Of a stretch of 16,072 bases of DNA, positions 2,045-15,593 are shown piece by piece; position 1 is the stretch's first letter; each line of letters opens with the position of its first letter. The stretch comes from Actinomycetales bacterium (GTDB taxonomy: Bacteria > Actinomycetota > Actinomycetes > Actinomycetales > Cellulomonadaceae). The stretch spans positions 1 through 16,072 of the forward strand of contig JAATES010000044.1 in NCBI GenBank assembly GCA_015655615.1. The letters run 5' to 3'. The position numbers and the translations under genes are program-made. Under the pieces are notes generated by a model. The model saw only the letters and a program-made list of their open reading frames with translations. It had not been told where the DNA came from and did not search any database.

Positions 2045-2046
2045 CC

Positions 2047-3843: not shown

Positions 3844-3850
3844 GGCCCTC

Positions 3851-5053
3851 ATGACACAGACCACCACCGCGGTATCGGCAGACGATCTGGTGTCCCGCGC
3901 CGAATCGCTGCTGCCCCGCCTGGCAGAACTCGCCATCGAGCACGACCGCTCCGCGGCCTTTCCCACTGAGTCGATCCGGCTGCTGCACGATGCCGGACTG
4001 CTCACCGCCACGGTCGGGCCTCAGTACGGAGGACCCGGCCTCGGCCATGAGGGGGTGCACCGGCTGCTGCTGACCCTGGGTCGTGCCGATCCCTCCGTGG
4101 CGCTGATCGCCTCGATGACCTTGGCCCTGCACCAGCGCGAGGCCGTCCGGCCGACCCTCGGCCCCGAGGTGTACGGCCGGATCCTCACCGAATCGGAGCA
4201 TGGCCCCGTCCTGATCAACTCGCTCCAGGTCGAACCCGCCCTGGGCACCCCGTCACGAGGGGGCGCCCCGGCCACGTCGGCCCGGCGCACCGGCGACGGA
4301 TGGCTCGTCACCGGGCACAAGATCTTCTCGACGGGGGCACCCGGCCTGCGGTGGATGCTCGTGCTGGCGACCACCGACGAAGCCGTTCCGCGGGTGGGGA
4401 CGTTCGTCGTCGAGGCCCACGCGCCGGGCATCGAGATCCGGCCCACCTGGTCGGCCACGGGGATGCGCGCGAGCCGCAGTGACGACGTCCTGCTCACCGA
4501 CGTCCACGTCGCATCCGACCGGGTGCTGGGGCTCCAGACGGCCGGCACCGGACAGCACAATCCACAAGGCCCGGGGACGTCCATCCCCTCGATCTACCTG
4601 GGAATCGCTGAGGCAGCGCGCGACTGGCTCGTCGGCTACCTCCACCATCGCATCCCCAGCAACCTGGGGCATCCTCTCATCGAGCTGCCGCGATTCCAGG
4701 ACGCGCTGGGCGAGATCGAACTGCGGCTCACCAATGCACGCGAGCTGCTGTGGGCGCTGTCGGCTCAGGCCGATGCCGGCCGGGCGATTCCCCGGGACAC
4801 CGCCTGGTCGGCCAAGACGCTGGCCAATCGCACGGCGATCTGGGCGGTCGAGCAGACGGTCTCCCTCATCGGGAATCCCGGGTTGAGCACTGACAATCCG
4901 CTCGAGCGTCACCTCAGAGACGTGCTGTGCTCCCGGGTCCACTTCCCTCAGCACGACACCGTGGCGCGGGCACTCGGCGCGACGGCCACCGGCCGCGTCC
5001 CGGCCACCCCAGAACCAGATCCCTCCTACCCACGTTCGGAGAAGACGACATGA
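3851..5053 (+). CDS. Acyl-CoA dehydrogenase-fold flavoprotein, DszC/SfnB-like FMNH2-dependent monooxygenase
   Basis: A 400-aa soluble flavoprotein of the acyl-CoA dehydrogenase superfamily. The N-terminal helical domain (1-120) has LLHDAGLLTATVGPQYGGPG. The middle beta domain (about 121-225) has GHKIFSTGA (155-163), which resembles the K-F-Y-S-T-G-A motif of the DszC/SfnB branch rather than ordinary fatty acyl-CoA dehydrogenases. The C-terminal helical domain ends with NPLERHLRDVL (349-359) and FPQHDTVARALG (365-376). The stretch where canonical enzymes carry the catalytic Glu (YEGT) reads PQHDT, so ordinary acyl-CoA dehydrogenation is unlikely. Members of this branch use reduced flavin and O2 to oxygenate sulfur or nitrogen compounds, and the FMN reductase ending this operon fits as partner. 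The start is 7 bases after the ATPase stop. Substrate unknown; the sulfur assignment is inference. Confidence 0.82.
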   Translation: MTQTTTAVSADDLVSRAESLLPRLAELAIEHDRSAAFPTESIRLLHDAGLLTATVGPQYGGPGLGHEGVHRLLLTLGRADPSVALIASMTLALHQREAVRPTLGPEVYGRILTESEHGPVLINSLQVEPALGTPSRGGAPATSARRTGDGWLVTGHKIFSTGAPGLRWMLVLATTDEAVPRVGTFVVEAHAPGIEIRPTWSATGMRASRSDDVLLTDVHVASDRVLGLQTAGTGQHNPQGPGTSIPSIYLGIAEAARDWLVGYLHHRIPSNLGHPLIELPRFQDALGEIELRLTNARELLWALSAQADAGRAIPRDTAWSAKTLANRTAIWAVEQTVSLIGNPGLSTDNPLERHLRDVLCSRVHFPQHDTVARALGATATGRVPATPEPDPSYPRSEKTT

Positions 5054-6120
5054 CCCGCTACATCATCATCGGTGCCGGCGCCATCGGCGCCACCCTCGCA
5101 GCCCAGCTGCACGACACCGGGCTCGACCACGTGCTCGTCGGCCGGGGAACGAACATCGAGGCCATCCGAAACGCCGGCCTGCGCTACGTGCAGCACGGTC
5201 GGGAGCGAGTCGTCCGCGTCGTCGCGGCGAACGGCCCGAGCGAGGTGCGACTCACCGCGGACGACGTGCTGGTGTTCGCCACCAAGGCGCAAGACCTCGA
5301 AGTCGCCACCCGGGACTGGGCGTGGCAGCCGGCGGACTTCGGCGGGCGAGAAGGACTGGCGGCCGAGCTTCCCGTCGTCACGCTGCAGAACGGCCTCGCG
5401 GCGGACCGGATCGCACTGCGCCGCTTCGGGGCCGTCCTCGGCGGCTCCCTCCTCACCCCCGCGCAGCACCTGGAGCCCGGGCAGGTCCGCTCGGGCGCAC
5501 GGGATGCGATCGGGGTCCTCACTCTGGGCGTGGCCACCAAAGGGGAGGACCCTCGGCTGGCGGCCATCCTGGCGAGCATCGCCGCCGACCTCCGACGTGC
5601 CCGGTACATCGTCCAGACCACCTCCGACGTCTCCCGCTGGCAGCGCGCCAAGCTCCTGCACTCGGTCCGCAACGGGCTGGAGGTCTTCGCGAGCACCACG
5701 GATGAGGTCACGCTCCTCGGCGATCTGCTGGTGGCTGAGGTGCGCGCGGTCTTCGGGGCTGCTGGTCTCGATGTCGCCGATACCGCGGCGGAGCGCACGG
5801 AGGACGTCTCGGCCTTCGGCCAGGATCCCGATTCCGGAATCCCCCGTGGTCAGCAGTCGACCTGGCAGAGCTTCAGCCGAGGGGCCTCCAGCGAGATCGA
5901 TTACCTCAACGGCGAGGTCGTGCTGCTCGGTCGCCTCCACGGCGTCGCGACGCCGTTCTCCACCGCAGTGCAGCACGTCCTGGGCGGGTCGAGCCTGCGA
6001 GGGGAGCGCCCGGGCACCCGCACCGTCGCAGAGGTCCATGACCATGTGGCCCGATCCCTGGCCGGGCGCTCGGCCACTGCCGCCTCTCCCGCCGCGACCC
6101 TGACAGGAGCCCTCCGATGA
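5050..6120 (+). CDS. Ketopantoate reductase-like (ApbA/PanE family) NADP-dependent dehydrogenase
   Basis: A 356-aa two-domain dehydrogenase. The N-terminal Rossmann fold has GAGAIG (8-13), then VFATKAQD with Lys79 and the family's QNG (113-115). The helical C-terminal domain has WQRAKLLHSVRNG, with Lys201 at the catalytic lysine position, and SSEIDYLNGEV with Glu282, the substrate-binding acid. One Asn that follows the catalytic Lys in E. coli PanE appears to be Ser or shifted, so the substrate is probably not ketopantoate itself. It likely reduces a 2-oxo acid, or oxidises a hydroxy compound, with NADP(H). At 356 aa it is longer than PanE (about 300), with an Ala/Thr-rich tail. The start ATG overlaps the upstream stop (ATGA). 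Catabolic operons often carry PanE-like paralogs unrelated to vitamin synthesis. Confidence 0.87.
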   Translation: MTRYIIIGAGAIGATLAAQLHDTGLDHVLVGRGTNIEAIRNAGLRYVQHGRERVVRVVAANGPSEVRLTADDVLVFATKAQDLEVATRDWAWQPADFGGREGLAAELPVVTLQNGLAADRIALRRFGAVLGGSLLTPAQHLEPGQVRSGARDAIGVLTLGVATKGEDPRLAAILASIAADLRRARYIVQTTSDVSRWQRAKLLHSVRNGLEVFASTTDEVTLLGDLLVAEVRAVFGAAGLDVADTAAERTEDVSAFGQDPDSGIPRGQQSTWQSFSRGASSEIDYLNGEVVLLGRLHGVATPFSTAVQHVLGGSSLRGERPGTRTVAEVHDHVARSLAGRSATAASPAATLTGALR

Positions 6121-6869
6121 GCCTCACCACCACCGCCTCCCCCCTGACGTGGATCGAACCCGCGGGCATCTCCCCGCGCGCCACCGTGATCGTGCTGGCC
6201 GGGCGCGGGGAGACCCCCGAGGTCTATGAGCGGTTCGGCAAGCGGCTCTCGCATGACGCCTTCCGCGTGGTCGCGGTGCCGACCAGCGAAGGCGACGTGC
6301 CCGACGAGGTCGTCGCCACGCTCCTCGCCGACGCCGCGACGATCCGCCCGGTCGTCCTGGTGGGCAGCGATATCGGGGCCCTTCATGCCCGCCGGATCGC
6401 GGACGCCCACCCGGCCGAGATCGCTGCGGTGGTGCTCGCGGGCATTCCGGGGCAGCGGCACACCGGCGGCGCCAGGGACCTCACGGAGGAGATCCAGGCC
6501 CGCACGGCCTGCCCCAACCACCAGCGGGTGCTGGGAACCGCCGCACGCTCGGCGCTGTTCGCAGCTCCGGTCGCATGGGGCCTGATCGAGAACGCGCTCG
6601 GATCGCCGGACCACGCGCCCGGAACTCCCGCTGCACAGGTCCCCGTGCTGGCCATCCATGGTGAGGCCGACACCATCAGCCCGCTCGGCGAGGCCACTGA
6701 GGCCTACCGGGGCCTGGGCGCGACGGAGGTCTCCGTCGTGAGGGACGGGCTCCATGACGTGCTGAACGACCTCACCCACCGCTCGGTGGCGGCGACGATC
6801 GTGCTGTTCCTCGAACGGGTGCGCCTGGGTGACCCGGGCCACCCGCTCATCGCACCGGTGGCCCTATGA
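6117..6869 (+). CDS. Alpha/beta hydrolase with Asp at the nucleophile position
   Basis: A 250-aa single-domain alpha/beta hydrolase. The strand VIVLAGRGE (24-32) would provide the oxyanion-hole region. The nucleophile elbow reads VGSDIGA (82-88), which fits Gly-x-Asp-x-Gly with Asp85 as nucleophile rather than the common Gly-x-Ser-x-Gly. The acid is probably Asp185 in HGEADTISP, and the base His213 in DGLHDVLND, a layout like lysophospholipase-type hydrolases. An Asp nucleophile is known from haloalkane dehalogenases and epoxide hydrolases, but the rest of the protein does not clearly match either, and the adjacent Ser84 leaves some doubt. The gene starts as ATGA inside the previous stop and ends as ATGA into the next, so it belongs to the operon. 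No signal peptide is seen. Probable role: hydrolysis of a pathway intermediate. Confidence 0.82.
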   Translation: MSLTTTASPLTWIEPAGISPRATVIVLAGRGETPEVYERFGKRLSHDAFRVVAVPTSEGDVPDEVVATLLADAATIRPVVLVGSDIGALHARRIADAHPAEIAAVVLAGIPGQRHTGGARDLTEEIQARTACPNHQRVLGTAARSALFAAPVAWGLIENALGSPDHAPGTPAAQVPVLAIHGEADTISPLGEATEAYRGLGATEVSVVRDGLHDVLNDLTHRSVAATIVLFLERVRLGDPGHPLIAPVAL

Positions 6870-8320
6870 CCGTCGTCGGCCAGCACACCTCGGAACAGGC
6901 CGGGACCCTCACCTCGGACGGCCTCACCGCGCTGCCGGGGTTCGCTGAACTGCCACAGGTGTCGACGGAACCGGCAGTCCTGGAACGGTTCCGGGTGGAC
7001 CGTTCCGGGTGGACGGGCCCGGAGAGGCCCGTGGCCGTGGCCCGGCCGCGCACCGTCGCCGATGTCCAGTCCGTCCTCGCCTTCGCACATCGTCACCGGA
7101 TCCCTGTCACACCGCGTGGCGCCGGTACGGGGCTGTCCGGGGGCGCCGTGGCCGCCGACGGCGGCATCGTCCTGGATGTGTCGGGGCTTGACCGGATCCT
7201 TCGCATCAATGCCGTCGACCAGCTCGCGATCGTGGAACCCGGTGTGCTCACCGTGGCGCTCGACGCTGCCGCGGCCCAGCATGGCCTGCGCTATGCACCC
7301 GACCCGGCGAGCGCGGCGATCTCGACGATCGGCGGCAACATCGCCACCAATGCGGGGGGCCTGCGGTGCGTCAAATATGGCGTGACTCGTGATGCCGTCC
7401 GGGCGCTCGACGTGGTCCTCGCCGATGGGCGACTCCTCCGCCTCGGCGCTGCGACGGCCAAGTCGGTGACCGGATACGATCTGACCAGCCTGTTCGTGGG
7501 GTCCGAGGGAACCCTCGGCGTGATCGTGCGGGCGACCGTCTCTCTGATCCCGCTGCCGACCAGCACCGCCACCGCCACCGCCTATTTCGACACCGTCGCG
7601 CAGGCCGCGGCCGCGGTGGCTGCAGTCTCCGCAGCCGGGATCCGTCCTGCAGTCGCCGAGTTGCTCGACGGCGCCACACTCGGCGCCATCGACGAGTTGC
7701 ATACCGACGCCGATCTCCCCCAAGGCACGCGGCCGGCAAGGCACGATGCCTTCGTCCTGATCCAGACGGACGGTGCCGGGGCGACGGCTGAGATCGACCT
7801 CGTCGCCGAGGTCCTCGCCGCATACGGGCACGACGTCGCTGTGACGACCGATCCCGTGGAAGCCGAGCGTCTGCTGGCGACCCGGCGCGACGCACTGCCC
7901 GCCCTGGAACGTCGCGGCCGCGTCCTGATCGAGGACATCGCCGTGCCGCGGTCGGCCCTGGCCGCAGCCATCGACGAGATCGAGCAGATCAGCGAGCGCA
8001 CCGGAGTGCAGGTGTACACCTTCGCGCATGCGGGCGATGGCAACCTGCATCCGATCATCGTCGTCGACCCCACGCTCGCCGATGCCGATGCCGATGCCGA
8101 TGCGCCACAGACCGTCCCTGCGATCGTGCAGCAGACCGCCGATCAGATCTTCCAGCTCGCCCTCGACCTCGGTGGGACCGTCACGGGCGAGCACGGCATC
8201 GGCCTGCTCAAGCAGTCGTGGGTGGCCCGCGAGCTCGACCCGATCGCCCATGAGCTGCAGCTCGGTATCCGCAGGCTCTTCGACCCGGCGGGCATTCTCA
8301 ACCCCGGCAAGGCGCTATGA
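6866..8320 (+). CDS. FAD-linked oxidase/dehydrogenase, GlcD family (D-2-hydroxy acid oxidising)
   Basis: A 484-aa flavoprotein of the VAO/PCMH superfamily. The FAD-binding domain (about 55-230) has PRGAGTGLSGG (83-93), DPASAAISTIGGNIATNAGG (146-165) and the GYDLTSLFVGSEGTLGVI block (203-220). The cap/C-terminal domain has HAGDGNLH (388-395), GEHGIGLLK (441-449) and FDPAGILNPGK (472-482). These are hallmarks of glycolate oxidase subunit D and of D-lactate and other D-2-hydroxy acid dehydrogenases, and the whole set is intact. It probably oxidises a hydroxy acid to an oxo acid. No GlcE or GlcF (Fe-S) partner lies nearby, so it may act alone. The start overlaps the hydrolase stop as ATGA. A hexanucleotide repeat adds an Ala-Asp run (405-412) after HAGDGNLH. 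Confidence 0.93.
   Translation: MTVVGQHTSEQAGTLTSDGLTALPGFAELPQVSTEPAVLERFRVDRSGWTGPERPVAVARPRTVADVQSVLAFAHRHRIPVTPRGAGTGLSGGAVAADGGIVLDVSGLDRILRINAVDQLAIVEPGVLTVALDAAAAQHGLRYAPDPASAAISTIGGNIATNAGGLRCVKYGVTRDAVRALDVVLADGRLLRLGAATAKSVTGYDLTSLFVGSEGTLGVIVRATVSLIPLPTSTATATAYFDTVAQAAAAVAAVSAAGIRPAVAELLDGATLGAIDELHTDADLPQGTRPARHDAFVLIQTDGAGATAEIDLVAEVLAAYGHDVAVTTDPVEAERLLATRRDALPALERRGRVLIEDIAVPRSALAAAIDEIEQISERTGVQVYTFAHAGDGNLHPIIVVDPTLADADADADAPQTVPAIVQQTADQIFQLALDLGGTVTGEHGIGLLKQSWVARELDPIAHELQLGIRRLFDPAGILNPGKAL
8078..8101 (+). repeat. Hexanucleotide microsatellite (GCCGAT x4) inside the GlcD-like gene
   Basis: Four perfect in-frame copies of GCCGAT encode Ala-Asp repeats in a surface loop after HAGDGNLH. 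Copy number can change by slippage without a frameshift. Confidence 0.9.
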
Positions 8321-8373
8321 GCCCGCTCACGACTCCAGTGTCCCCCGCTCTGCTCTTCAACCAAGGATTCTCC

Positions 8374-8943
8374 ATGACCAGCCCGCTTCGCATCGTCACC
8401 GTCAACGGCAGTCCCGAGCTGCCATCTCGCACCAGCGTGGTCCTCGAGGCGCTCGCGAACGCGGTGGCAGCGCGCGTCCCGGCTTCCATCCACCGGGTCG
8501 AGACCGCCGACCTCGTGGGCCAGCCCCTGGGCGTCCGGCGGGACCAGCTCTCCCGCCGGACCCAGGACGACCTGCAGAGCATCGAGACCGCCGACCTGAT
8601 CGTGGCGGGCACTCCCGTCTACAAGGGCTCGTACACGGGGCTGTTCAAGTACCTTTTCGACCTGGTGGACCAGTATGCACTTGTCGATGTTCCCGTGATC
8701 CTCGCTGCCACCGGTGGCAGCGAACGCCATACCCTCGTCATCGAGCATCAGCTGCGTCCCCTGTTCGGCTTCTTCCAGGCGGCGACCGCCCCGCTGGGCG
8801 TCTATGCGCACTCCAGCGAGTTCGACACGTTCGAGATCGTGAACACCACCTTGCGCGCTCGGATCGAGCGGGCGGCGGAGCGCGCGGTGGCGTCACTCGT
8901 ACCGAACTCGACGCTGCGCGAGCTCAACCCGGCGGCGTTGTGA
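8374..8943 (+). CDS. NAD(P)H-dependent FMN reductase, SsuE/MsuE (CE1759-like) family
   Basis: A 189-aa flavodoxin-fold reductase that would supply FMNH2 to a two-component monooxygenase. Visible motifs are VNGSPELPSRT (10-20, phosphate-binding loop), AGTPVYKGSYTGLFK (78-92) and ATGGSERH...EHQLRPLFGFF (112-134), the pattern of SsuE/MsuE reductases. It resembles the reductases paired with luciferase-like monooxygenases in actinobacteria (the CE1759-type family as I recall it). The frame is open from an ATG at 8317 overlapping the previous stop, but that adds 19 unconserved residues. The start at 8374 is preferred because AAGGA lies 6 bases upstream and the protein then begins directly with the first beta strand. 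It is the last gene of the operon. Its likely partner here is the DszC/SfnB-like protein, and possibly a further monooxygenase upstream of the window. Confidence 0.88.
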   Translation: MTSPLRIVTVNGSPELPSRTSVVLEALANAVAARVPASIHRVETADLVGQPLGVRRDQLSRRTQDDLQSIETADLIVAGTPVYKGSYTGLFKYLFDLVDQYALVDVPVILAATGGSERHTLVIEHQLRPLFGFFQAATAPLGVYAHSSEFDTFEIVNTTLRARIERAAERAVASLVPNSTLRELNPAAL

Positions 8944-8960
8944 GCCCGGCATGCGACCCC

Positions 8961-8980
8961 AGCGGCGCCCGGCCGCCGCT
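8961..8980. terminator. Hairpin between convergent genes
   Basis: Perfect 7-bp inverted repeat (AGCGGCG / CGCCGCT) with a 6-base loop, lying between the FMN reductase stop and the convergent membrane-protein gene and just overlapping the latter's stop codon. There is no T-run on either side. A bidirectional intrinsic terminator is plausible, since GC-rich actinobacterial terminators often lack the U-tract. Confidence 0.45.
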
Positions 8981-9278
8981 AACTACGACGATCCGCGCGG
9001 ACCGCCAGCACGGCACCGGCCAGCACGCCGACCGTCGCGAAGCCGAGCGCGGTGAAGAACGTCACGAATCCGAGGTTGGAGTGATGGTTCCAGGCGGCGC
9101 TCGCAAACAGTGAGGCCACGATGCCGACGATGGCTCCGATCACTACGCCGGCCATCACGAAGGCGGCGAACCGGGGAGCGCGGCGGACCCGGGCCTCGGC
9201 TGCGGTCGCCTCGATCTGCGCGACCTGCTCGGCCGTGAGGGAGGAGTCTGCTGCGGCCTGCGGTGTGCTGCTGTCCAT
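8979..9278 (-). CDS. Small membrane protein, two predicted helices, function unknown
   Basis: A 99-aa protein with a hydrophilic N-terminus (residues 1-35, rich in Ala, Glu and Ser) followed by two hydrophobic segments, about 38-60 (AFVMAGVVIGAIVGIVASLF) and 70-93 (GFVTFFTALGFATVGVLAG), and an Arg-rich end. The positive residues before helix 1 and after helix 2 suggest both termini are cytoplasmic. I do not recognise a function; similar small two-helix proteins are widespread in actinobacteria. There is no Shine-Dalgarno sequence before the ATG. Instead a TAGACT box ends 6 bases upstream, so the mRNA may be leaderless with its own promoter. The gene lies 38 bases downstream of the SCP2-like gene on the same strand. 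Confidence 0.78.
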   Translation of the reverse strand: MDSSTPQAAADSSLTAEQVAQIEATAAEARVRRAPRFAAFVMAGVVIGAIVGIVASLFASAAWNHHSNLGFVTFFTALGFATVGVLAGAVLAVRADRRS

Positions 9279-9284
9279 GACCGC

Positions 9285-9290
9285 AGTCTA
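9285..9290 (-). promoter_or_regulatory. Candidate -10 box of a leaderless promoter for the small membrane protein
   Basis: On the minus strand TAGACT is followed by the 6 bases GCGGTC and then directly by the ATG. This is the TANNNT spacing expected when transcription starts at the A of the start codon. No clear -35 box is seen and no ribosome binding site fits. Confidence 0.4.
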
Positions 9291-9316
9291 TGGTTCCCGG
9301 ATGGTGCGGGTCGTCG

Positions 9317-9685
9317 CTACTGGATCAGCGGCCTCGGAAGCGGCAGCAGTTCCGTCAGGTCGGCGCGCAGGCCTGATGCCCGGACCCGCCCGGCCGCAGT
9401 CGCGTCCTCCCAGCTCACCCTGCCCGTGGCCAGCTCCAGCCAAGTCTGGGGGTCGGTCTCCACGACGTTCGGCGGGGTACCCCGGGTGTGCCGGGGACCG
9501 GACACGCACTGCACCACCCCCGCCGGGGGCACCCGCACCTCCACCGAGTGCCCCGGGGCCAGTTCGGCGAGGGTCTCCAGGGTGTACCGCACCGCCGTGG
9601 TGACCTCGCGCGCCCTGGCGCGACCTTCGTTCCAGGCCCGCAGTGCTGCCGCACCGATGACCGGATCGGTCCTGCGTCGTGCCAT
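9317..9685 (-). CDS. SCP2-like (sterol carrier family) actinobacterial protein
   Basis: A 122-aa cytoplasmic protein matching the pattern of the small 'sterol carrier family' proteins that actinobacteria conserve. It has an N-terminal helix with [15 protein letters not shown] (31-45), a strand [10 protein letters not shown] (47-56), the characteristic [16 protein letters not shown] (63-78), then [12 protein letters not shown] (81-92) and [14 protein letters not shown] (103-116). The family shares the SCP2 fold, a hydrophobic pocket that in other members holds lipids; the bacterial ligand is unknown, and sterol binding should not be assumed. The start is well supported: GGAAGGAGG lies about 8 bases before the ATG. 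A TAGGGT box some 30 bases upstream could be a -10 element. The gene lies downstream of map on the same strand with an 88-base gap. Confidence 0.87.
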
Positions 9686-9773
9686 CTGGCTCGCCTCCTT
9701 CCGACGTCTCCCGGTACCCTAACCGCCCCTGGCCGGGGAGAGCTCGCACGGGTTCAGCCGGACGCCCGCACGG

Positions 9774-10550
9774 TCAGGCCGGCGTCGGCACGGTGAGGAT
9801 GTCGGCGCCGTGATCGGTGATCGCGATGGTGTGCTCGCTGTGGGCCGCCCGGCTGCCCGTGGCGCTGCGCAGCGTCCACCCGTCGGCGTCGGTCACGAGG
9901 TGGGCGGTGTCCGCCATGATCCACGGTTCCAGCGCCAGCAGCAGTCCCGGCCGCAGGACGTATCCGCGCCCGGGTCGACCCGTGTTCGACACGTGCGGGT
10001 CCTGGTGCATCGTCGATCCGATGCCGTGGCCGCCGAACTCGGTGTTGATCGGGTAGCCCGCCTCACTGAGCACGGAACCGATGGCATGGGAGATATCGCC
10101 GATACGGGCGCCCGGCCCGGCAGCGGCTATCCCTGCGGCCAATGCCCGCTCGGTCGCACTGATCATCGCGACGCTCTCCGGGGGCTTGTGGTCGCCCACG
10201 ATGAAGCTGATGGCAGCGTCGGCGGCGATCCCGTCCTTGACCACGGCGAGGTCCAGGGTCAGCAGGTCACCGTCGGCCAGCCGGTAGTCATGCGGTAGCC
10301 CGTGCAGCACGGCGTCGTTGACCGCGGTGCAGATGTAGTGGCCGAACGGCCCGCGCCCGAAGGAGGGCGCATAGTCCACATAGCAGGACACCGCCCCCTC
10401 CTGGACGATCATGGCCTGAGCCCATCGATCGATGTCCAGGAGGTTGGTGCCCACCACGCTGCGCGTCTTCAGGGCCTGGAGGATGTCCGCCACCAAAGAT
10501 CCGGTGACGCGGGCTCGGCGCAACTCAGTGGAGCTGAGGATCTCAATCAT
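9774..10550 (-). CDS. map: Methionine aminopeptidase, type I
   Basis: A 258-aa metallopeptidase that removes the initiator Met from new proteins whose second residue is small. The pita-bread fold motifs and all five metal ligands are present: Asp100 in LTLDLAVVKDG, Asp111, His175 in GGHGIGSTMHQDPH (173-186), Glu208 in LALEPW and Glu239 in SEHT. His83 in VLHGLPHDY fits the substrate-side histidine. There is no N-terminal zinc finger or SH3-binding extension, as in E. coli-type MAP1. GAGAGG 5 bases before the ATG is a usable ribosome binding site. It is transcribed divergently from an XRE regulator gene, and the shared 64-bp region holds direct repeats overlapping its likely -10 boxes. This is probably a second, regulated Map copy, since the main copy often sits in the ribosomal-protein cluster; that is inference. 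Confidence 0.93.
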   Translation of the reverse strand: MIEILSSTELRRARVTGSLVADILQALKTRSVVGTNLLDIDRWAQAMIVQEGAVSCYVDYAPSFGRGPFGHYICTAVNDAVLHGLPHDYRLADGDLLTLDLAVVKDGIAADAAISFIVGDHKPPESVAMISATERALAAGIAAAGPGARIGDISHAIGSVLSEAGYPINTEFGGHGIGSTMHQDPHVSNTGRPGRGYVLRPGLLLALEPWIMADTAHLVTDADGWTLRSATGSRAAHSEHTIAITDHGADILTVPTPA

Positions 10551-10574
10551 GTGGGCCTCTCGTGTGAACCAATA

Positions 10575-10598
10575 ACTATCCCGGCAATACTATCCCGG
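10575..10598. promoter_or_regulatory. Tandem direct repeat, candidate operator for map/XRE divergent promoters
   Basis: ACTATCCCGG occurs twice, at 10575-10584 and 10589-10598, a 14-bp period. It lies between the two divergent starts. Read on the minus strand each copy contains GATAGT, so the candidate map -10 boxes (TAGTAT and TAGTTA) sit on the repeats. The HTH protein encoded next door is the natural candidate binder. Operator function is inferred. Confidence 0.45.
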
Positions 10599-10601
10599 TA
10601 C

Positions 10602-10607
10602 TAGAAT
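10602..10607 (+). promoter_or_regulatory. -10 box of a leaderless promoter for the XRE gene
   Basis: TAGAAT (5 of 6 to TATAAT) is followed by 7 bases and then the ATG at 10615. No Shine-Dalgarno sequence precedes the ATG, so transcription probably starts at the A of the start codon. The -35 region falls in the direct repeats and is not consensus, which fits an autoregulated promoter. Confidence 0.5.
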
Positions 10608-10614
10608 TGGCGCC

Positions 10615-10923
10615 ATGGTCAGATTGCCCCTCACCCCTGCCGAGGTCGAACGCGGTCAACGTCTCGGGGCCCTGCTGCGCCGGTCCAGGGGGGAACGCTC
10701 CATGCTCGCCACCGCACTGGACGCAGGCCTCTCCCCGGAGACACTGCGCAAGATCGAGTCCGGCCGGGTGGCCACGCCTGCGTTCTCCACCATCGCGGCG
10801 ATCGCGGACGTCCTCGGGCTCTCTCTCGACGCCCTATGGCGGGAGGCCAGCCCAGCTGCCGACGTGGACGACGCGGCATCGGAGCTACCGGATCGCGACA
10901 CCTCCGGCCAACTGGCCTCCTAG
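10615..10923 (+). CDS. XRE-family helix-turn-helix transcriptional regulator
   Basis: A 102-aa DNA-binding protein. The HTH domain covers about residues 13-76: GQRLGALLRRSRG, then the recognition portion LSPETLRKIESGRVATPAFSTIAAIADVLGLSLDALW, which carries the R-K-I-E-x-G and A-D-V-L-G-L-S-L-D-x-L features typical of XRE/Cro-type repressors. The C-terminal 25 residues are acidic and likely disordered, with no effector domain. It is divergently oriented to map across 64 bp, and I recall this map/XRE pairing in other actinobacteria. The likely role is to control map and itself through the ACTATCCCGG repeats. Translation appears leaderless. The stop is followed by a small hairpin. Confidence 0.9.
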   Translation: MVRLPLTPAEVERGQRLGALLRRSRGERSMLATALDAGLSPETLRKIESGRVATPAFSTIAAIADVLGLSLDALWREASPAADVDDAASELPDRDTSGQLAS

Positions 10924-10942
10924 TCACCGGCACCTTCCCCAC

Positions 10943-10958
10943 TCGGCTCACCAGCCGA
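10943..10958 (+). terminator. Candidate terminator hairpin after the XRE gene
   Basis: Perfect 6-bp stem TCGGCT/AGCCGA with loop CACC, 20 bases after the XRE stop. No U-tract follows, so it is weak as an intrinsic terminator. Confidence 0.35.
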
Positions 10959-10999
10959 CCACGATTCGGAACGAGTCGTCTCGCATATCGGCACAGGGG

Positions 11000-11028
11000 T
11001 GGACAAGGTTTCCTGAGTGGAATAGTCT
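11000..11028 (+). promoter_or_regulatory. Promoter of the Cys-rich leader/sulfurtransferase transcript
   Basis: TGGACA (11000-11005, 5 of 6 to TTGACA), a 17-base spacer and TAGTCT (11023-11028, TANNNT) make a good housekeeping-sigma promoter. The leader ATG begins 7 bases after the -10 box, so the transcript most likely starts at the A of the ATG and is leaderless. This is the best-formed promoter in the window. Confidence 0.65.
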
Positions 11029-11035
11029 ACTTCGC

Positions 11036-11146
11036 ATGACGCGCGCACTGACCTCGAGCCCAGCCGTCCCGGCTGTCGACATGAGGCACGCCCGTTGCTG
11101 TCCGGTCCGAATGCCGGTCATGCGATGTCTGCCCATCGGGCACTGA
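11036..11146 (+). CDS. Cys-rich leader peptide (Ms5788A-like), attenuator of the downstream sulfurtransferase
   Basis: A 36-aa ORF ending ARCCPVRMPVMRCLPIGH, with Cys at 21, 22 and 31 (codons TGC, TGT, TGT). Short Cys-rich leader peptides upstream of sulfurtransferase (cysA2-type) genes are known in mycobacteria, where ribosome stalling at Cys codons under cysteine shortage switches on the downstream genes; the Ms5788A family is the matching type. Here the leader ATG sits 7 bases after a -10 box with no ribosome binding site, so it is probably leaderless, as those leaders often are. An internal ATG at 11081 in the same frame would give a 21-aa product. Overlapping hairpins lie near its end. 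The gap to the sulfurtransferase start is unusually long, 251 bases. Family assignment is by pattern recall. Confidence 0.72.
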   Translation: MTRALTSSPAVPAVDMRHARCCPVRMPVMRCLPIGH

Positions 11147-11159
11147 CCCGCATGCAGAC
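11119..11159 (+). promoter_or_regulatory. Alternative RNA hairpins overlapping the end of the leader peptide
   Basis: Two exclusive pairings are visible. Structure A nests TGCCC/GGGCA (11130-11134 with 11138-11142, loop ATC) inside CATGCG/CGCATG (11119-11124 with 11149-11154). Structure B pairs GTCTGC/GCAGAC (11127-11132 with 11154-11159) and uses bases of both A stems. A ribosome stalled on Cys21-22 or Cys31 (codon 11126-11128) would bias the choice, as in an attenuator. The stems are short and need folding calculations. Confidence 0.35.
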
Positions 11160-11185
11160 GACCGCGCCGCACACCGCGCACTGAA

Positions 11186-11202
11186 CGGCCCTACGGTGGC
11201 CG
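11186..11202 (+). terminator. Possible attenuation hairpin downstream of the leader
   Basis: CGGCC and GGCCG pair perfectly (5 bp, 7-base loop) 40 bases after the leader stop. There is no U-run. It could be an attenuator terminator or nothing; it also lies just past the end of the antisense small ORF. Confidence 0.25.
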
Positions 11203-11212
11203 CTGTCAAGCG

Positions 11213-11311
11213 CTAGTGCCCGCCTTCGCCCTTGTCGCCGCCGCGCTTCATGGCCGCGATCCAGAGCGCACAGGCGATCTTCCTGGTCCCGCTCGGCGGG
11301 ACGCCACTCAT
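11213..11311 (-). CDS. Candidate 32-aa small protein antisense to the leader region
   Basis: A short minus-strand ORF encoding MSGVPPSGTRKIACALWIAA then MKRGGDKGEGGH. In favour: AGAGGAG lies 5 bases before the ATG, one of the better ribosome binding sites in the window, and third codon positions are almost all G or C, as in the surrounding genes. The product would have a short amphipathic or hydrophobic centre (about 11-21) and a basic, Gly-rich tail. Against: it lies within the presumed transcript linking the leader to the sulfurtransferase, it is very short, and no promoter is evident. I do not recognise the family. Confidence 0.4.
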   Translation of the reverse strand: MSGVPPSGTRKIACALWIAAMKRGGDKGEGGH

Positions 11312-11397
11312 CGGCACTCCTCTGTCCTCCGTCACCACACCTCGCCCACCACGCCGGCGAGGCACCGTGCACGGACGAACCCTGACGAAAGATCCTC

Positions 11398-12282
11398 ATG
11401 AGCGTCCTCATCTCCCCCGCTGAACTCACCCGCCTCCTCGCCAAGGGAATCGCACCCAAGCTGCTCGACGTCCGCTGGAGTCCGATCGCACCCCATGGCC
11501 AGGCCGACTATGTGTCCGGCCACCTGCCCGGGGCCGCCTACGTCGACCTCGAGCACGAGCTTTCCCTGCGGGGCGCCCGCTCTGAGGGCCGACGCCCGCT
11601 CCCTCCCATCGAAGACCTGCAGAGTGCCGTGCGCCGGTGGGGGATCTCCGAGGGCGATACCGTGGTCGTCTACGACGACGCAGCAGGCCTGGCCGCTTCC
11701 CGCGCCTGGTGGCTGCTGCGTCATGCGGGCCTGACCGATGTGCGCATCCTCGATGGCGCACTATCCGGGTGGCGCAAGTCCGGCGGGCACCTTCAGGCAG
11801 GCACTCCGCTGATCGAACGCGGCAACGCAGTTCTGAGTTATGGGCATCTGCCGACCGTGACCATCGACCAGGCTGCGGAGCTGCCCACCTACGGCGTCCT
11901 GCTGGATGCCCGGGCCCCGGAACGCTACCGTGGCGAGGCCGAACGGCTGGACCGGCTGGCCGGTCACATCCCGGGCGCGGTCAATGCCCCCGCCTCCGAG
12001 AACCTGACGCCGGAGGGCAACTTCCGCAGCGCCCACGCCCTGCGGGCCAGGTTCACTGAGCTGGGCCTGTCCGAGCACGACGTGATCGCCGTGTACGGCG
12101 GGTCGGGCATCACTGCCTCGCAGGACATCGCAGCCCTAGCCATCGCCGGGTTCAGCGCCGCGCTGTACCCGGGTTCGTGGTCACAGTGGGTCAACACTCC
12201 CGGACGACCCATCGAGACCGAGGAGAACTCCGTGGACACGGTGCGTTCCCGGCTCTGGGCGCAGACAGTGGGCGCTGCCTAG
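11398..12282 (+). CDS. Two-domain rhodanese-type sulfurtransferase (SseA/CysA2-like) lacking the catalytic cysteine
   Basis: A 294-aa protein with two rhodanese domains. The N-terminal, normally inactive domain (about 5-130) has KLLDVRW, GHLPGAAYVDLE and VVVYDDAAGLAASRAWWLLRHAG. The C-terminal domain (about 150-275) has LLDARAPERYRGE (168-180), AGHIPGAVNAPASENL (188-203) and the active-site loop. That loop should read C-G-S-G-V-T-A but here is YGGSGITAS, with Gly234 (codon GGC at 12097-12099) in place of the persulfide-forming Cys. The whole protein contains no cysteine, so thiosulfate or mercaptopyruvate sulfurtransferase chemistry through Cys is impossible. The rest of the fold is well preserved and the frame intact. 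It lies downstream of a Cys-rich leader peptide, which suggests cysteine-responsive control. The ribosome binding site is weak (GAAAGA). It may be a regulatory or binding pseudoenzyme. Confidence 0.9.
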   Translation: MSVLISPAELTRLLAKGIAPKLLDVRWSPIAPHGQADYVSGHLPGAAYVDLEHELSLRGARSEGRRPLPPIEDLQSAVRRWGISEGDTVVVYDDAAGLAASRAWWLLRHAGLTDVRILDGALSGWRKSGGHLQAGTPLIERGNAVLSYGHLPTVTIDQAAELPTYGVLLDARAPERYRGEAERLDRLAGHIPGAVNAPASENLTPEGNFRSAHALRARFTELGLSEHDVIAVYGGSGITASQDIAALAIAGFSAALYPGSWSQWVNTPGRPIETEENSVDTVRSRLWAQTVGAA

Positions 12283-12317
12283 CCTCTCCCGCTGCCACCT
12301 GTGAACGGGACCCGTAG

Positions 12318-12323
12318 TAGCAT
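12318..12323 (+). promoter_or_regulatory. Possible -10 box for the ABC exporter genes
   Basis: TAGCAT fits TANNNT and lies about 90 bases before the GTG start, just ahead of the inverted repeat. No convincing -35 box sits at the expected distance. Confidence 0.25.
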
Positions 12324-12329
12324 AGGCGG

Positions 12330-12369
12330 CGCAGGCCGCGGACCCCGGGGCAGCTGAAGGCGGCCTGCG
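12330..12369 (+). promoter_or_regulatory. 10-bp inverted repeat in the leader of the ABC exporter genes
   Basis: CGCAGGCCGC (12330-12339) and GCGGCCTGCG (12360-12369) pair perfectly around a 20-base loop holding the palindrome CCCCGGGG (12343-12350). It lies between the sulfurtransferase stop and the ATPase start. It could terminate the upstream transcript, act as a leader structure for the transporter, or be a repressor site. No T-run follows. Confidence 0.45.
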
Positions 12370-12409
12370 GTCGTCATCTCGCCCCGACAGCCCTACCACG
12401 GGAGATAGT

Positions 12410-13465
12410 GTGCTCGCCGAGACCGGGACACCGCTGGCCATCGAGACCCATCAGCTCCGCAAGACCTATCGCAAGGTGCTGGGCAGGCGCACCGTCGCTG
12501 TGACAGGGTTGGACCTGCGGGTTCCGGCCGGAGGCGTCCACGGCTTCCTGGGACCCAACGGATCGGGCAAGACGACCACCATCCGCATGCTGCTCGGCCT
12601 GATCCGCGCGGACTCCGGGACGATGTCGGTCCTCGGGCAGCCGGTACCGCGTCGCCTCCCTGCCGTGGTCAACCGGGTGGGGGCTATCGTGGAGCAGCCC
12701 AAGTTCTACCCCCACTTCAGTGCCCGCGAGAACCTCATCCAGCTCGCCGGTGCCATCGGCGCGCCGCGCAGCAAGGTCGACGCGGTCCTCGAGGCCGTCC
12801 GGCTTCGTGAGCGGGCGGGCGACAAATACCGCACCTTCTCGCTGGGCATGAAACAGCGCCTGGCGATCGCCGCGACGCTCCTGAAGGACCCGGACCTGCT
12901 GATCTTCGACGAGCCGACCAACGGGCTCGACCCGGCCGGAATCCGGGAGATCCGCGAGACCATGCGCTCCCTGGCCACCCAGGGAAAGACGGTGCTGGTC
13001 TCGAGTCACATCCTCGCCGAGGTCGAGCACGTGGCAGACACGGTCTCGATCATCGGCCGGGGCACCTTGCTGGCCGAGGGGCGCGTGCGCGACCTCATTG
13101 CGAGCCGTGGCGTGGCCGAGGTCCGGGTCGGGCTGCCGGAGGCCGCACTGCCCCAGGGGCTGGCCGTACTGCAGTCCGCGGGGTTCGCGGTGCGCAGCCA
13201 GGAATCGCAATTGCGGGTGTCCGGGAGGGTGGATGCGGCAGCGGTGGATGCGGCAGCGGTCAACCGCGTCCTGGCGCAGGCCGGGTTGTACGCGCATCAC
13301 CTGGTCAGCGAACGGGCAGGCCTGGAACAGATCTTCCTGGAACTCACTGCGGGCGAGACTCCGGGAGGGCAAGCGGACCCGCCGTCCTCCTCGTCATCGT
13401 CCTCCTCGACGCCCATCTCGCCGACACCGTCGAGCGAGTCGCCCACCGAAGGGCAGGTGCGGTGA
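12410..13465 (+). CDS. ABC transporter ATP-binding protein, BcrA/CcmA-type exporter
   Basis: A 351-aa ATPase of the drug/bacitracin-export type. Walker A is GPNGSGKTT (48-56), the Q-loop IVEQPKF has Gln96, the signature is FSLGMKQRL (143-151, the LGMKQR variant typical of BcrA-like proteins), Walker B with D-loop is LLIFDEPTNGLD (163-174), and the switch His is H200. Residues 225-312 form the usual C-terminal accessory region, with a duplicated VDAAA made by a 15-bp tandem repeat. The last 30 residues are a Ser/Pro-rich low-complexity tail (eight Ser in a row at 326-333), unusual for the family. The start is a GTG with GGGAG 5 bases upstream. The stop overlaps the permease start. Together they form an export or membrane-stress ABC pair; the substrate is unknown. 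Confidence 0.93.
   Translation: MLAETGTPLAIETHQLRKTYRKVLGRRTVAVTGLDLRVPAGGVHGFLGPNGSGKTTTIRMLLGLIRADSGTMSVLGQPVPRRLPAVVNRVGAIVEQPKFYPHFSARENLIQLAGAIGAPRSKVDAVLEAVRLRERAGDKYRTFSLGMKQRLAIAATLLKDPDLLIFDEPTNGLDPAGIREIRETMRSLATQGKTVLVSSHILAEVEHVADTVSIIGRGTLLAEGRVRDLIASRGVAEVRVGLPEAALPQGLAVLQSAGFAVRSQESQLRVSGRVDAAAVDAAAVNRVLAQAGLYAHHLVSERAGLEQIFLELTAGETPGGQADPPSSSSSSSSTPISPTPSSESPTEGQVR
13229..13258 (+). repeat. 15-bp perfect tandem duplication within the ABC ATPase gene
   Basis: Two head-to-tail copies of GTGGATGCGGCAGCG, in frame, encoding VDAAA twice. The exact identity, including third positions, suggests a recent slippage duplication. Confidence 0.9.
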
Positions 13466-14445
13466 TGCTCCGTCTCATCGGTGTGGAGTTCCGGCGTTTC
13501 AGCAAGCGTGCCGCGTTCCGGTGGGCGGGGATCGCCTTGATCGTGATCCTCGGCGCCATGCTCATCTCGATCTATCGTTCCGCAGCGCCGCCGGATCCTG
13601 GTGCACTCGCGCAAGCCCAGGTGGCGTCCGACGAGAACAATGCCTTCAATCAGGACTATTACGCACCCGGTGGCGGGTGCGAGGTCGAGCAGGCGGCCGA
13701 TCCGACCATCGACTTCGGTTGCGATTCCATCCCCGTCGCGTCCACGCCTCAGGACTACCTGTCTCCGCCGTCGACCTACAGTGCGCAGGGGCTGAGCGAC
13801 ACCAGTGACTTCAGCACTCTGCTGCTCTTCTTCGCGCTCGTCGTCGGGATCAGCTTCGTCACGGCAGAGTTCTCCTCGGGAGCGATCACGAACTGGCTCA
13901 CCTTCCAACCCCGCCGAACCCGGGTCTATGCGGCCAAGGCGATCGCTCTCACCGGAGCCGTCACGGCCGCGATGGCCGTGCTACTGGGTCTTCTCTTCGC
14001 GGGACGGCGACTCGCGTACTCCCTGCAGGATTCCTTAGGTGACAATGTCGCCGCCGCGACAAGGCTCAACCTGCAGATGTCTGGGCGGATCCTGGTGCTC
14101 ACCGTCCTGGTCACCTTGATGGGAATGGCCCTGGGCATGCTGCTGCGGCATGCTGCGATGGCGCTGGGTCTGGTGTTCGGGTACCTCATCTGGGAGGGCT
14201 TTCTGCGCCTCCTCACCCAGAACGGCTGGCGGTGGCTGCTCACGCCGCGCATTGAGGCCTGGACCCAGGGGCAGGCCACCTTCTCGGACCCCACTGGCTC
14301 CTGTTCGTCGTGGAGCCCCGATGGTGAGTGCCTCTCCAATGTCCACTACATCTTCCAGGCAAGTGCCGGCTGGTACCTGCTCGGTGCGACCGTGGTGCTC
14401 ACCGGGATCGCGTGGGCGGTCTTCCGCCGTCGCGACGTGATCTGA
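13465..14445 (+). CDS. ABC-2 type permease subunit
   Basis: A 326-aa integral membrane protein with about six hydrophobic segments near 20-38, 116-134, 158-180, 207-227, 231-252 and 302-320, the ABC-2 permease layout. A large extracytoplasmic loop after helix 1 (about 40-113) carries Cys72 and Cys86. The loop before the last helix carries Cys280 and Cys289, so two extracellular disulfides are possible. FVTAEFSSGAITNWLTFQPRR (131-151), after helix 2, resembles the conserved cytoplasmic region in permeases paired with BcrA-type ATPases. The start is ATG 13465, overlapping the ATPase stop as TGATG; a GTG immediately before it (13462) is equally open and would add one residue. No ribosome binding site of note, consistent with translational coupling. 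Confidence 0.88.
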   Translation: MLRLIGVEFRRFSKRAAFRWAGIALIVILGAMLISIYRSAAPPDPGALAQAQVASDENNAFNQDYYAPGGGCEVEQAADPTIDFGCDSIPVASTPQDYLSPPSTYSAQGLSDTSDFSTLLLFFALVVGISFVTAEFSSGAITNWLTFQPRRTRVYAAKAIALTGAVTAAMAVLLGLLFAGRRLAYSLQDSLGDNVAAATRLNLQMSGRILVLTVLVTLMGMALGMLLRHAAMALGLVFGYLIWEGFLRLLTQNGWRWLLTPRIEAWTQGQATFSDPTGSCSSWSPDGECLSNVHYIFQASAGWYLLGATVVLTGIAWAVFRRRDVI

Positions 14446-14468
14446 GCAGCCGCGGGCGCAACGCTGCT
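14445..14468 (+). terminator. Weak hairpin after the permease gene
   Basis: AGCAGC (14445-14450) and GCTGCT (14463-14468) form a 6-bp stem with a 12-base loop, overlapping the last base of the permease stop. There is no U-tract, so evidence is low. Confidence 0.25.
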
Positions 14469-14496
14469 GAAACCTGGTAGGCCTACGCTCAGCACT

Positions 14497-14520
14497 ATGG
14501 ATTCAGCACGATGGATGTAG
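14497..14520 (+). other. Seven-codon ORF overlapping the dehydrogenase start
   Basis: ATG followed by codons for DSARWM and a TAG, out of frame with the dehydrogenase ATG at 14511. TACGCT (14484-14489, TANNNT) ends 7 bases before this ATG, the spacing of a leaderless promoter. If used, ribosomes would start here and terminate 7 bases past the dehydrogenase ATG, favouring reinitiation. Speculative. Confidence 0.25.
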
Positions 14521-15593
14521 CGGTGCTCGGCGCCACCGGTGACGTCGGCCGGCAGGTGTGCGCACAGCTGATCGAGCGGCGGGTCCTTCCGACCTCCTCG
14601 CGCCTGCAGTTGGTAGGGCGCGCGGATGGCTCCTCGGCGCGTGCCGCTTACGGGCTGCGCGCCGACCTCATCGACGCCTACGACGAGCATGCGCCGTTGA
14701 TCGACGTCGCACTGAGCCCCGAGGACGTAGTAGCCGACGTCGTGGTGCTCACCGCCGGGAGGACGTCACCGGCGCGATCCGGCGGCTCCGTCGACCGGGC
14801 ACAGTTGGCTGCCGACAACCACGCCGTGTTCTCCGACTATGCGCAGGCGCTGGCTCGCCACGGGTCCGGGCACGAGGTGGTCATCGTGGTGTCCAACCCC
14901 GTCGAACTCGGGGTGGCCGTCGCCGCCGAGCAGCTGGGTCGTCACCGCGTCATCGGCATGGGCGCCTGGCTGGACACTCTGCGGTTCCGCCGAGAGATCG
15001 CCGTGTCGCTCGGCGTGCGCCGGCAACGGGTCGGCGGATTCGTCAGCGGCCAACACGGAAACGAGGTGGTTCCGTTGTGGTCGTCCGTGCGGATCCGCGG
15101 GCTTGACACCGACGAACGACTCCGGGCCGTCGCCGCTCTGCGCGGCGAGCGGCTGCTCGATGACTTCGACGAGGAGATCGCCCAGGCCAAGGTCACGCTC
15201 GACGCGCTGGTGGACGCCGACATCGAACGGGCCTTCGCCCTCATCGACACCTGGCCGCCGGACCTGCGGGTCGTCGTGCGGCCCTGGCTCACTCACCAGT
15301 CGGGGGCCAAGACCGCCTCCGGCACCGCCAGCGCGACCGTCGACCTGGTCGACACCGTGCTGGACGGCCGGGACATCGTCGTGGCGGGCCAGGTCAGCCT
15401 GGATGGCGAGGTCGCACTGAACGGCGAGCCCTTCTCGGGGGTGCTGGGGGTTCCGGTCATCCTGGGACCCGAGGGCTGGACCCATGTCATGCTGGACGAC
15501 CTCGCGCCGGACGAGCTCCGCCGGGTGCAGCAGTCCGCGCGCGGGATCGACGCGATGCTGTCGCAGTGGCCCCGGTGCGGAGGCGCCCGATGA
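14511..15593 (+). CDS. Malate/lactate dehydrogenase family NAD-dependent oxidoreductase
   Basis: A 360-aa protein of the LDH/MDH superfamily. The Rossmann motif is GATGDVG (7-13), then VLTAGRTSPARSGGSVDR (79-96, mobile substrate loop with Arg84 and other arginines), VVSNPVEL (126-133, NAD/substrate Asn129), GAWLDTLRFRREIA (151-164, Asp155 and Arg158) and SGQHGNEVVPLWS (179-191, catalytic His182). The Asp-His pair and substrate Arg are kept, but the loop after the first Arg differs from classical MDH (PRKPGM) and LDH, so the 2-hydroxy acid used cannot be named. At 360 aa it is longer than the usual 310-330. No Shine-Dalgarno sequence precedes the ATG. A seven-codon ORF starting at 14497 overlaps the start. 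The stop overlaps the ACT-protein start (ATGA), suggesting linked function. Confidence 0.88.
   Translation: MDVAVLGATGDVGRQVCAQLIERRVLPTSSRLQLVGRADGSSARAAYGLRADLIDAYDEHAPLIDVALSPEDVVADVVVLTAGRTSPARSGGSVDRAQLAADNHAVFSDYAQALARHGSGHEVVIVVSNPVELGVAVAAEQLGRHRVIGMGAWLDTLRFRREIAVSLGVRRQRVGGFVSGQHGNEVVPLWSSVRIRGLDTDERLRAVAALRGERLLDDFDEEIAQAKVTLDALVDADIERAFALIDTWPPDLRVVVRPWLTHQSGAKTASGTASATVDLVDTVLDGRDIVVAGQVSLDGEVALNGEPFSGVLGVPVILGPEGWTHVMLDDLAPDELRRVQQSARGIDAMLSQWPRCGGAR

What the first reader, a model, noticed from the sequence alone, without database searches (positions are those of the whole stretch)
11398..12282. Cysteine-free rhodanese: catalytic Cys replaced by Gly in an otherwise intact sulfurtransferase
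The active-site loop, canonically C-G-S-G-V-T-A, reads G-G-S-G-I-T-A, with GGC at 12097-12099 where TGC or TGT is expected. The 294 residues contain no Cys at all, while surrounding fold motifs are well kept. Established knowledge: rhodaneses carry sulfur as a persulfide on this Cys. The protein must therefore be a pseudoenzyme (binding, sensing or scaffold), use other chemistry, or be recently inactivated by one T-to-G change. Being Cys-free and downstream of a cysteine-responsive leader is suggestive: a protein made during cysteine starvation that costs none.
Basis: partly seen in the sequence, partly recalled or inferred. Interest (0 to 1): 0.82.

Follow-up and report, generated by a model that had tools for sequence, protein, structure and literature searches.

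The report
Sulfurtransferase that lost its catalytic cysteine
A bacterial sulfur-transfer enzyme has lost the single cysteine it needs for catalysis, its nearest relatives show related changes, and the protein still appears to be kept by selection, possibly for a non-enzymatic role.

Summary
ORF 11398-12282 is a two-domain rhodanese of mercaptopyruvate-sulfurtransferase type with GGC (Gly) at 12097-12099 and no Cys. Being Cys-free is no separate oddity: 99 of 110 aligned rows have exactly one Cys. The genome is a fragmented draft in the genus of Rarobacter. Synteny and a tree make this gene the genus ortholog. In that four-row clade the nucleophile is Gly (here), Ser (isolate KH10) and Cys (two others); it is Cys in all 106 other rows examined. 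The three mates have changed Arg176 and Gly235, invariant in those 106. A codon model rejects neutral decay over the whole branch (omega 0.037), not at its tip. A Cys-bearing paralog lies 16.7 kb upstream if two contigs sharing a unique 141-nt end are adjacent. All five loci share promoter-like boxes and a leaderless Cys-containing ORF; Cys codons are clustered in the four orthologs, not the paralog. Best reading: a maintained pseudoenzyme in a lineage leaving sulfurtransferase chemistry. Late inactivation remains possible. Function is untested; structure prediction could not be run.

The parts
11398..12282 (+). Two-domain rhodanese (mercaptopyruvate-sulfurtransferase type) with no Cys
12097..12099 (+). 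Codon 234, GGC (Gly), at the place of the catalytic Cys (TGC in the Cys-bearing orthologs and paralogs read)
11593..11595 (+). Codon 66, CGC (Arg); His in 105 of 106 rows outside the clade; aligns with the His of the H-M-L-P motif in PDB 1urh and 4jgt
11944..11955 (+). Codons 183-186: Arg183 (Pro in 106/106) and Arg186 (Pro in 103/106); PDB 1uar has a 7-residue insertion between residues 185 and 186 of this protein
11000..11028 (+). Promoter-like boxes TGGACA - 17 nt - TAGTCT; similar boxes at the same place upstream of 4 related genes; not found by the tool's consensus scan of the window
11036..11146 (+). Leaderless 36-aa ORF with a Cys-Cys pair and a third Cys (MTRALTSSPAVPAVDMRHARCCPVRMPVMRCLPIGH), probable cysteine-sensing leader
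12410..13465 (+). ABC transporter ATPase, downstream of the rhodanese in all four genus orthologs
13462..14445 (+). ABC-2 type permease, same conserved neighbourhood
8979..9685 (-). Small ORF with no Pfam match and SCP_3 gene that flank the genus rhodanese; synteny markers

Best explanation
This is the genus ortholog of a mercaptopyruvate-sulfurtransferase-type enzyme that has lost sulfurtransferase chemistry and is retained as a pseudoenzyme. Shown by sequence: both the nucleophile (Cys234, now Gly) and the near-invariant His66 (now Arg) are gone; the rhodanese motifs, Ser236, Arg172 and Arg176 are kept; the coding sequence as a whole is under purifying selection; the three nearest orthologs have their own active-site changes, one with Ser for Cys; a Cys-bearing paralog exists in the same draft genome. 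Inferred: the gene is read when cysteine is short, through its Cys-codon leader; the cleft still binds an anionic sulfur ligand, helped by arginines 66, 183 and 186 if these face it; and it acts by binding, as a sensor, a sink or a subunit paired with the active paralog, not by carrying a persulfide.
For: Cys in 106 of 106 rows outside the clade and lost in 2 of 4 inside it (Fisher p 0.001, clade chosen after the fact and relatedness ignored). Window and three genus mates form a clade (99/92), and the two Cys-bearing mates group apart from KH10 (99/86), so Gly and Ser most simply arose on separate branches. Of 70 columns conserved in the 106, the window departs at 5 and the mates at 9, 9 and 8; the 106 depart at 0.61 on average, at most 3. 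With conservation judged on all 109 other rows, so less biased, it is 68 columns with 5 and 8, 8, 8, median 0. Terminal omega 0.037 against 0.033, omega 1 rejected by 9.45 log units. Small gene - SCP - rhodanese - ABC ATPase - permease in all four. Leaderless Cys ORF and promoter-like boxes in five of five loci. Paralog with CGSGVTAAH on contig C4, whose last 141 nt are the window's first 141.
Against: No activity, binding or expression data. The omega test cannot date the loss; the end of the branch could be neutral, and the fit is a single run on long branches with near-saturated synonymous sites. Pairwise dN/dS of the window with its kin (0.22-0.40) is somewhat above that of the other pairs in the same table (0.17-0.34). 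Closest sequence is 66% identical and there is no second strain. The ligand, the heteromer and the position of the arginines are inference. The window keeps Arg176 and Gly235 that its mates changed, so the four do not share one remodelled site. The paralog's leader has only two single Cys codons; no terminator-like repeat with a T tail was seen in the window.
Confidence: 0.55

Rival explanations
1. Recently inactivated gene on its way to decay: the Cys-bearing paralog 16.7 kb upstream covers the function, and two late point changes destroyed the catalytic site.
For: A Cys-bearing paralog with a similar promoter and leaderless ORF is present. Both catalytic codons differ by one base from the orthologs'. 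The rest of the loop, GSGIT, is intact. Window pairs have slightly higher dN/dS than other pairs.
Against: Terminal omega shows no rise over background. The reading frame is intact. The Ser form in KH10 occurs in a genome where one search found one such gene and one distant thiosulfate-type gene.
Confidence: 0.28
2. Consensus or assembly error in a fragmented draft genome (406 contigs, 81% complete).
For: The genome is a fragmented, incomplete draft with 3.4% contamination.
Against: Two separate catalytic positions are altered, plus two near-invariant prolines, while the frame is open. Ser at the same site in KH10 comes from a separate assembly.
Confidence: 0.06
3. Still an enzyme, with chemistry that does not need a thiol, for example hydrolysis using Ser236 (or Ser234 in KH10), in a genus-wide change of substrate.
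For: Ser236 is S in 106 of 106 other rows and in the window, and residues 176, 182, 183, 185, 188 and 235 are changed together in the three mates.
Against: The His of the proposed Ser-His-Asp set is lost in the window; no listed title or abstract start in the paper searches described such a case.
Confidence: 0.11

Closest known systems
3-mercaptopyruvate sulfurtransferase (PDB 1urh and 4jgt; that these are E. coli SseA and human MPST is recalled)
   Same: Two rhodanese domains, GSG[VI]TA loop, Ser236; first and third sequence match among solved structures
   Different: Nucleophile Cys and near-invariant His absent; two Arg for Pro before the GHIPG motif
Non-catalytic rhodanese domains (human USP8; TBC1D23)
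   Same: Rhodanese fold used for binding without sulfurtransferase activity (PMC7274447 passages; PMC12057046 listing and abstract start)
   Different: Those are domains fused to other domains; here it is a free-standing bacterial two-domain protein with no Cys in either domain. TBC1D23 is reported as inactive despite a putative active-site Cys
Leaderless cysteine-rich upstream ORF of mycobacterial cysA2
   Same: Leaderless small ORF with Cys codons upstream of a rhodanese gene (PMC4633059 passages)
   Different: Different rhodanese subtype and host group; no expression data here; no clear terminator in the window
Frondihabitans FrST and M. tuberculosis SseA (thiosulfate type)
   Same: Actinobacterial two-domain rhodaneses; a mobile loop covers the active site (PMC10962793, PMC12375888 passages)
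   Different: Catalytic Cys present; thiosulfate-type loop

Membership tests
3-mercaptopyruvate sulfurtransferase | Two rhodanese domains | tested here: met
   Pfam Rhodanese, 2 stretches; alignment of residues 36-273 to 1urh
3-mercaptopyruvate sulfurtransferase | Nucleophile Cys in a CGS(T)GVTA loop | tested here: not met
   Gly234; loop definition from PMC10962793 passages
3-mercaptopyruvate sulfurtransferase | Ser, His and Asp set proposed to activate the Cys | tested here: not met
   Ser236 kept, His66 is Arg, Asp50 kept; a Ser-His-Asp set is described in PMC12926118 passages, but which residues they are here rests on alignment and recall
3-mercaptopyruvate sulfurtransferase | Substrate arginines | tested here: met
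   Arg172 and Arg176 kept in the window; residue 176 is His in the three mates; that they bind substrate is by alignment and recall
3-mercaptopyruvate sulfurtransferase | NCBIfam NF008557 score at or above 250 | tested here: inconclusive
   127.6 bits; Cys-bearing relatives were not scored for comparison
3-mercaptopyruvate sulfurtransferase | Sulfur transfer activity | not testable with these tools
   Needs purified protein
Rhodanese pseudoenzyme | No catalytic Cys in either domain | tested here: met
   No Cys in 294 residues
Rhodanese pseudoenzyme | Protein maintained by selection | tested here: met
   Terminal omega 0.037, omega 1 rejected; late relaxation not excluded
Rhodanese pseudoenzyme | A binding partner or ligand | not tested
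Cysteine-responsive leaderless leader | Start codon directly downstream of the -10 box | tested here: met
   6-7 nt in all five loci; boxes found with a pattern built by eye from these loci; no transcript data
Cysteine-responsive leaderless leader | Clustered Cys codons, conserved among orthologs | tested here: met
   3, 4, 5 and 6 Cys with CC or CCC in the four genus orthologs; 2 unclustered in the C4 paralog
Cysteine-responsive leaderless leader | Terminator or equivalent switch between leader and gene | tested here: inconclusive
   Perfect inverted repeats of 10 and 8 bp followed by T-rich DNA in two mates, a 7-bp one without a T run in KH10, two 7-bp ones without a T tail in the window, none in C4; the tool's terminator scan found none in the three loci given, window, L007 and L008

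The most novel reading that the evidence does not exclude
In this genus a sulfurtransferase is being turned into a binding protein under cysteine-leader control: the orthologs show different stages of catalytic loss (substrate-site residues changed with Cys kept; the same with Cys replaced by Ser; Cys replaced by Gly with His replaced by Arg), and the protein here is an arginine-rich receptor for an anionic sulfur compound that serves the adjacent ABC transporter or the active paralog.
Probability: 0.18. Interest if true: 0.62.

Novelty: new variant of a known kind. Interest (0 to 1): 0.43.

Why it matters
In the papers seen here, rhodaneses are Cys enzymes or dead domains fused to something else; a review of the human set lists four classes, none of which is a two-domain protein with both domains inactive (PMC10135228 passages). 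A free-standing two-domain bacterial rhodanese with no Cys, kept by selection, with orthologs at different stages of catalytic loss, would be a small natural series for asking how an enzyme becomes a pseudoenzyme and what the fold does without its thiol. It also sits behind a probable cysteine-sensing leader, which in mycobacteria precedes a rhodanese gene too.

Tried and rejected
Cys-free as thrift under cysteine starvation: rejected as an argument, because 99 of 110 aligned rows have only one Cys. Recent duplicate of the C4 copy: the tree with window and C4 held together is 8.57 log units worse, p-AU 0.042, so weakly rejected. Contig from another organism: made unlikely by synteny with three genus mates, a 75% identical copy of the neighbouring dehydrogenase gene in one of the three mates (the other two have only matches of 31-36%) and the unique 141-nt overlap with contig C4, whose own placement was not tested. 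A widespread Gly-loop family: pattern found only in the window's genome among 396 order genomes and, for codons not starting in T, among 394 class genomes. Both patterns demand Tyr before the site, TCN for Ser and ACN for Thr, so they miss variant loops; one search also misses codons starting with T. The KH10 Ser form was found by alignment, not by these patterns. The Cys-Cys small-ORF scan alone is not specific: 18 of 111 loci against 101 of 774 control windows. The promoter plus leaderless-ATG pattern had 14 hits, all copies of five loci, but it was built from those loci, so only its absence elsewhere is informative. The tool's promoter scan found none in the window stretch and one each in L007 and L008, against shuffle means of 0.2 and 0.3. 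NCBIfam had no match for the leader peptide. The careful 110-row tree did not finish; the quick tree was used. Paper searches. No title or abstract start in those listings described a Cys-less two-domain bacterial rhodanese; listings were capped and most subscription papers are not held. PMC5228037 was opened and held none of the terms asked.

Full report
Observation. The ORF at 11398-12282 encodes 294 residues with no Cys, and codon 234 is GGC at 12097-12099. Pfam finds two rhodanese stretches. The best sequence matches among solved structures are 1urh (3-mercaptopyruvate sulfurtransferase), 1uar (rhodanese) and 4jgt (3-mercaptopyruvate sulfurtransferase). The loop is GGSGITASQ where most relatives read CGSGVTAAH or close to it.

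How unusual. Of 119 BLAST rows, with duplicates and distant rows in, the site is C in 115, G in 2 (both this gene) and S in 2 (both the KH10 gene). For the later counts I kept hits at E 1e-40 or better, one per locus, and dropped identical aligned stretches and the second copy of the window, which leaves 110 rows. They are best-scoring hits and not a census: one search kept 80 of 325 relatives and one search gave loci for 30 places. Outside the genus clade C is found in 106 of 106. A loop pattern with any codon not starting in T at the site matched 1 of 394 class genomes, the window's own; the TGY version matched 49 of 118, a smaller draw. A Gly pattern matched 1 of 396 order genomes. Lack of other Cys is ordinary: 99 of 110 rows have exactly one over the aligned stretch.

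A second loss. Of 70 columns at least 95% conserved in the 106 rows, the window departs at 5: L29P, H66R, P183R, P186R and C234G. His66 aligns with the His of the H-M-L-P motif in 1urh and 4jgt. A Ser-His-Asp set that helps form the Cys thiolate has been proposed for human MPST (PMC12926118, passages seen); that this His belongs to it is by alignment and recall. 1uar has a seven-residue insertion between residues 185 and 186 of this protein, just before the GHIPG motif; in actinobacterial thiosulfate-type enzymes a loop of that region covers the active site (PMC10962793 and PMC12375888, passages seen; that it is the same loop is my reading).

Genome and neighbourhood. The window is contig C347 of a 2.17-Mb, 406-contig draft, 81% complete and 3.4% contaminated. 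In all three mates a small gene, an SCP-like gene, the rhodanese, an ABC ATPase and a permease follow in this order, with purM-purF-like genes on the far side of the small gene, directly in two and some 3.8 kb away in G002 (purM and purF were named by eye from translations, not by a family search). The window has the same order from the small gene onward, with a methionine aminopeptidase and a small HTH gene inserted before the rhodanese. The rhodanese is thus the genus ortholog. Contig C4 carries the purM-purF-like genes followed by a Cys-bearing paralog (66% identical) and then genes that look like a LysR regulator, two flavin monooxygenases and a substrate-binding protein (named by eye). 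The last 141 nt of C4 equal the first 141 nt of the window, and these are the only two places in the genome. If the contigs are adjacent the two rhodaneses are 16.7 kb apart.

Tree. With 34 of the 110 rows, chosen by me, window and the three mates form a clade (99/92), with C4 outside (five-row clade 100/100). Holding window and C4 together costs 8.57 log units, p-AU 0.042. The two Cys-bearing mates group apart from KH10 (99/86). The 110-row quick tree agrees (94 and 99 by SH-aLRT). Hence Gly and Ser most simply arose separately. Two of four against 0 of 106 gives Fisher p 0.001, with the clade chosen after the fact and relatedness ignored. The mates depart at 9, 9 and 8 of the 70 columns, including R176H and G235T, both invariant in the 106, which themselves depart at 0.61 on average, at most 3. 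Judging conservation on the 106 favours them; with all 109 other rows used it is 68 columns, 5 for the window, 8 for each mate, 1 for C4, median 0. The window keeps Arg176 and Gly235, so the site was not remodelled in one common step, apart from L29P and the loss of Pro183, which all four share.

Selection. Pairwise NG86 dN/dS between window and its kin is 0.22 to 0.40; the ten other pairs in the table give 0.17 to 0.34; dS is near saturation. A codon model written for this purpose (8 taxa, 264 codons, fixed tree, one optimiser start) gives the window branch omega 0.037 against 0.033 elsewhere, no gain in likelihood; fixing it at 1 loses 9.45 log units. A fit with four classes gained 4.8 log units over one omega, with 0.087 background, 0.036 window, 0.014 mates and 0.035 C4. 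Absolute values are uncertain with long branches. The test rejects neutrality over the whole branch, not near its tip.

Leader. Boxes TGGACA, 17-18 nt, TANNCT, then 6-7 nt, then ATG open a short ORF upstream of the rhodanese in window, C4 and all three mates; in the fetched DNA (2.19 Mb counting both strands and duplicates) the 14 hits are copies of these five loci. The pattern was built from them, so only the absence elsewhere counts. The tool's promoter scan reports the boxes in L007 and L008 and none in the window, whose -10 box is poorer. The peptides have 3, 2, 4, 5 and 6 Cys (window, C4, R. faecitabidus, KH10, G002). Perfect inverted repeats of 10 and 8 bp followed by T-rich DNA lie between leader and gene in R. 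faecitabidus and G002, a 7-bp one without a T run in KH10, two of 7 bp without a T tail in the window and none in C4. A plain scan for small ORFs with Cys-Cys is not specific (18 of 111 against 101 of 774 controls). A leaderless Cys-rich ORF upstream of the rhodanese gene cysA2 is described in mycobacteria (PMC4633059, passages seen), so the arrangement is not new.

Interpretation. The persulfide mechanism needs the thiol, so this protein cannot be a normal sulfurtransferase. Because its kin show different active-site changes and the sequence is constrained, I favour a maintained pseudoenzyme in a lineage leaving this chemistry. What it binds is not known; the retained and gained arginines suggest an anion. 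The active paralog and the ABC pair are candidate partners by location only. The main alternative is late inactivation with the paralog covering. Sequencing error is unlikely but cannot be excluded without reads.

Limits. Only three genus mates are in the set. No expression or activity data.

Noticed in passing
window 96-8943 and contig C4 (L119) 8675-14933: A possible organosulfur-scavenging island: C4 paralog rhodanese, LysR-like regulator, two flavin monooxygenase-like genes, a substrate-binding protein (all named by eye), then Opp/Nik-type permease and ATPase genes, an acyl-CoA-dehydrogenase-like gene with a weak SfnB match, a PanE-like gene, a hydrolase, a GlcD-like oxidase and an MsuE-like FMN reductase. 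It lies between purF-like and small/SCP-like genes that are near each other in the genus mates.
   Followed up: partly
L120 (contig C167) 4073-14612: A second cluster with 44-49% identical Opp and PanE-like genes and a third, Cys-bearing rhodanese (56% identical).
   Followed up: partly
window 9774-10550 (-) and 10615-10923 (+): A type I methionine aminopeptidase and a small HTH gene sit between the SCP-like gene and the leader; no match to them in the three mates' stretches at the cut-off printed.
   Followed up: partly
20-22 nt upstream of the -35 box in window, L002, L007, L008, L009: A shared TCTCACA-like box (sequences) that could be an operator for a sulfur regulator; seen by eye only.
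   Followed up: no
L007, L008, L009 rhodaneses: The three genus mates read [CS]TSGIAAAH in the active loop and have His for Arg176, which is R in 106 of 106 other rows, so their substrate may not be mercaptopyruvate either.
   Followed up: partly
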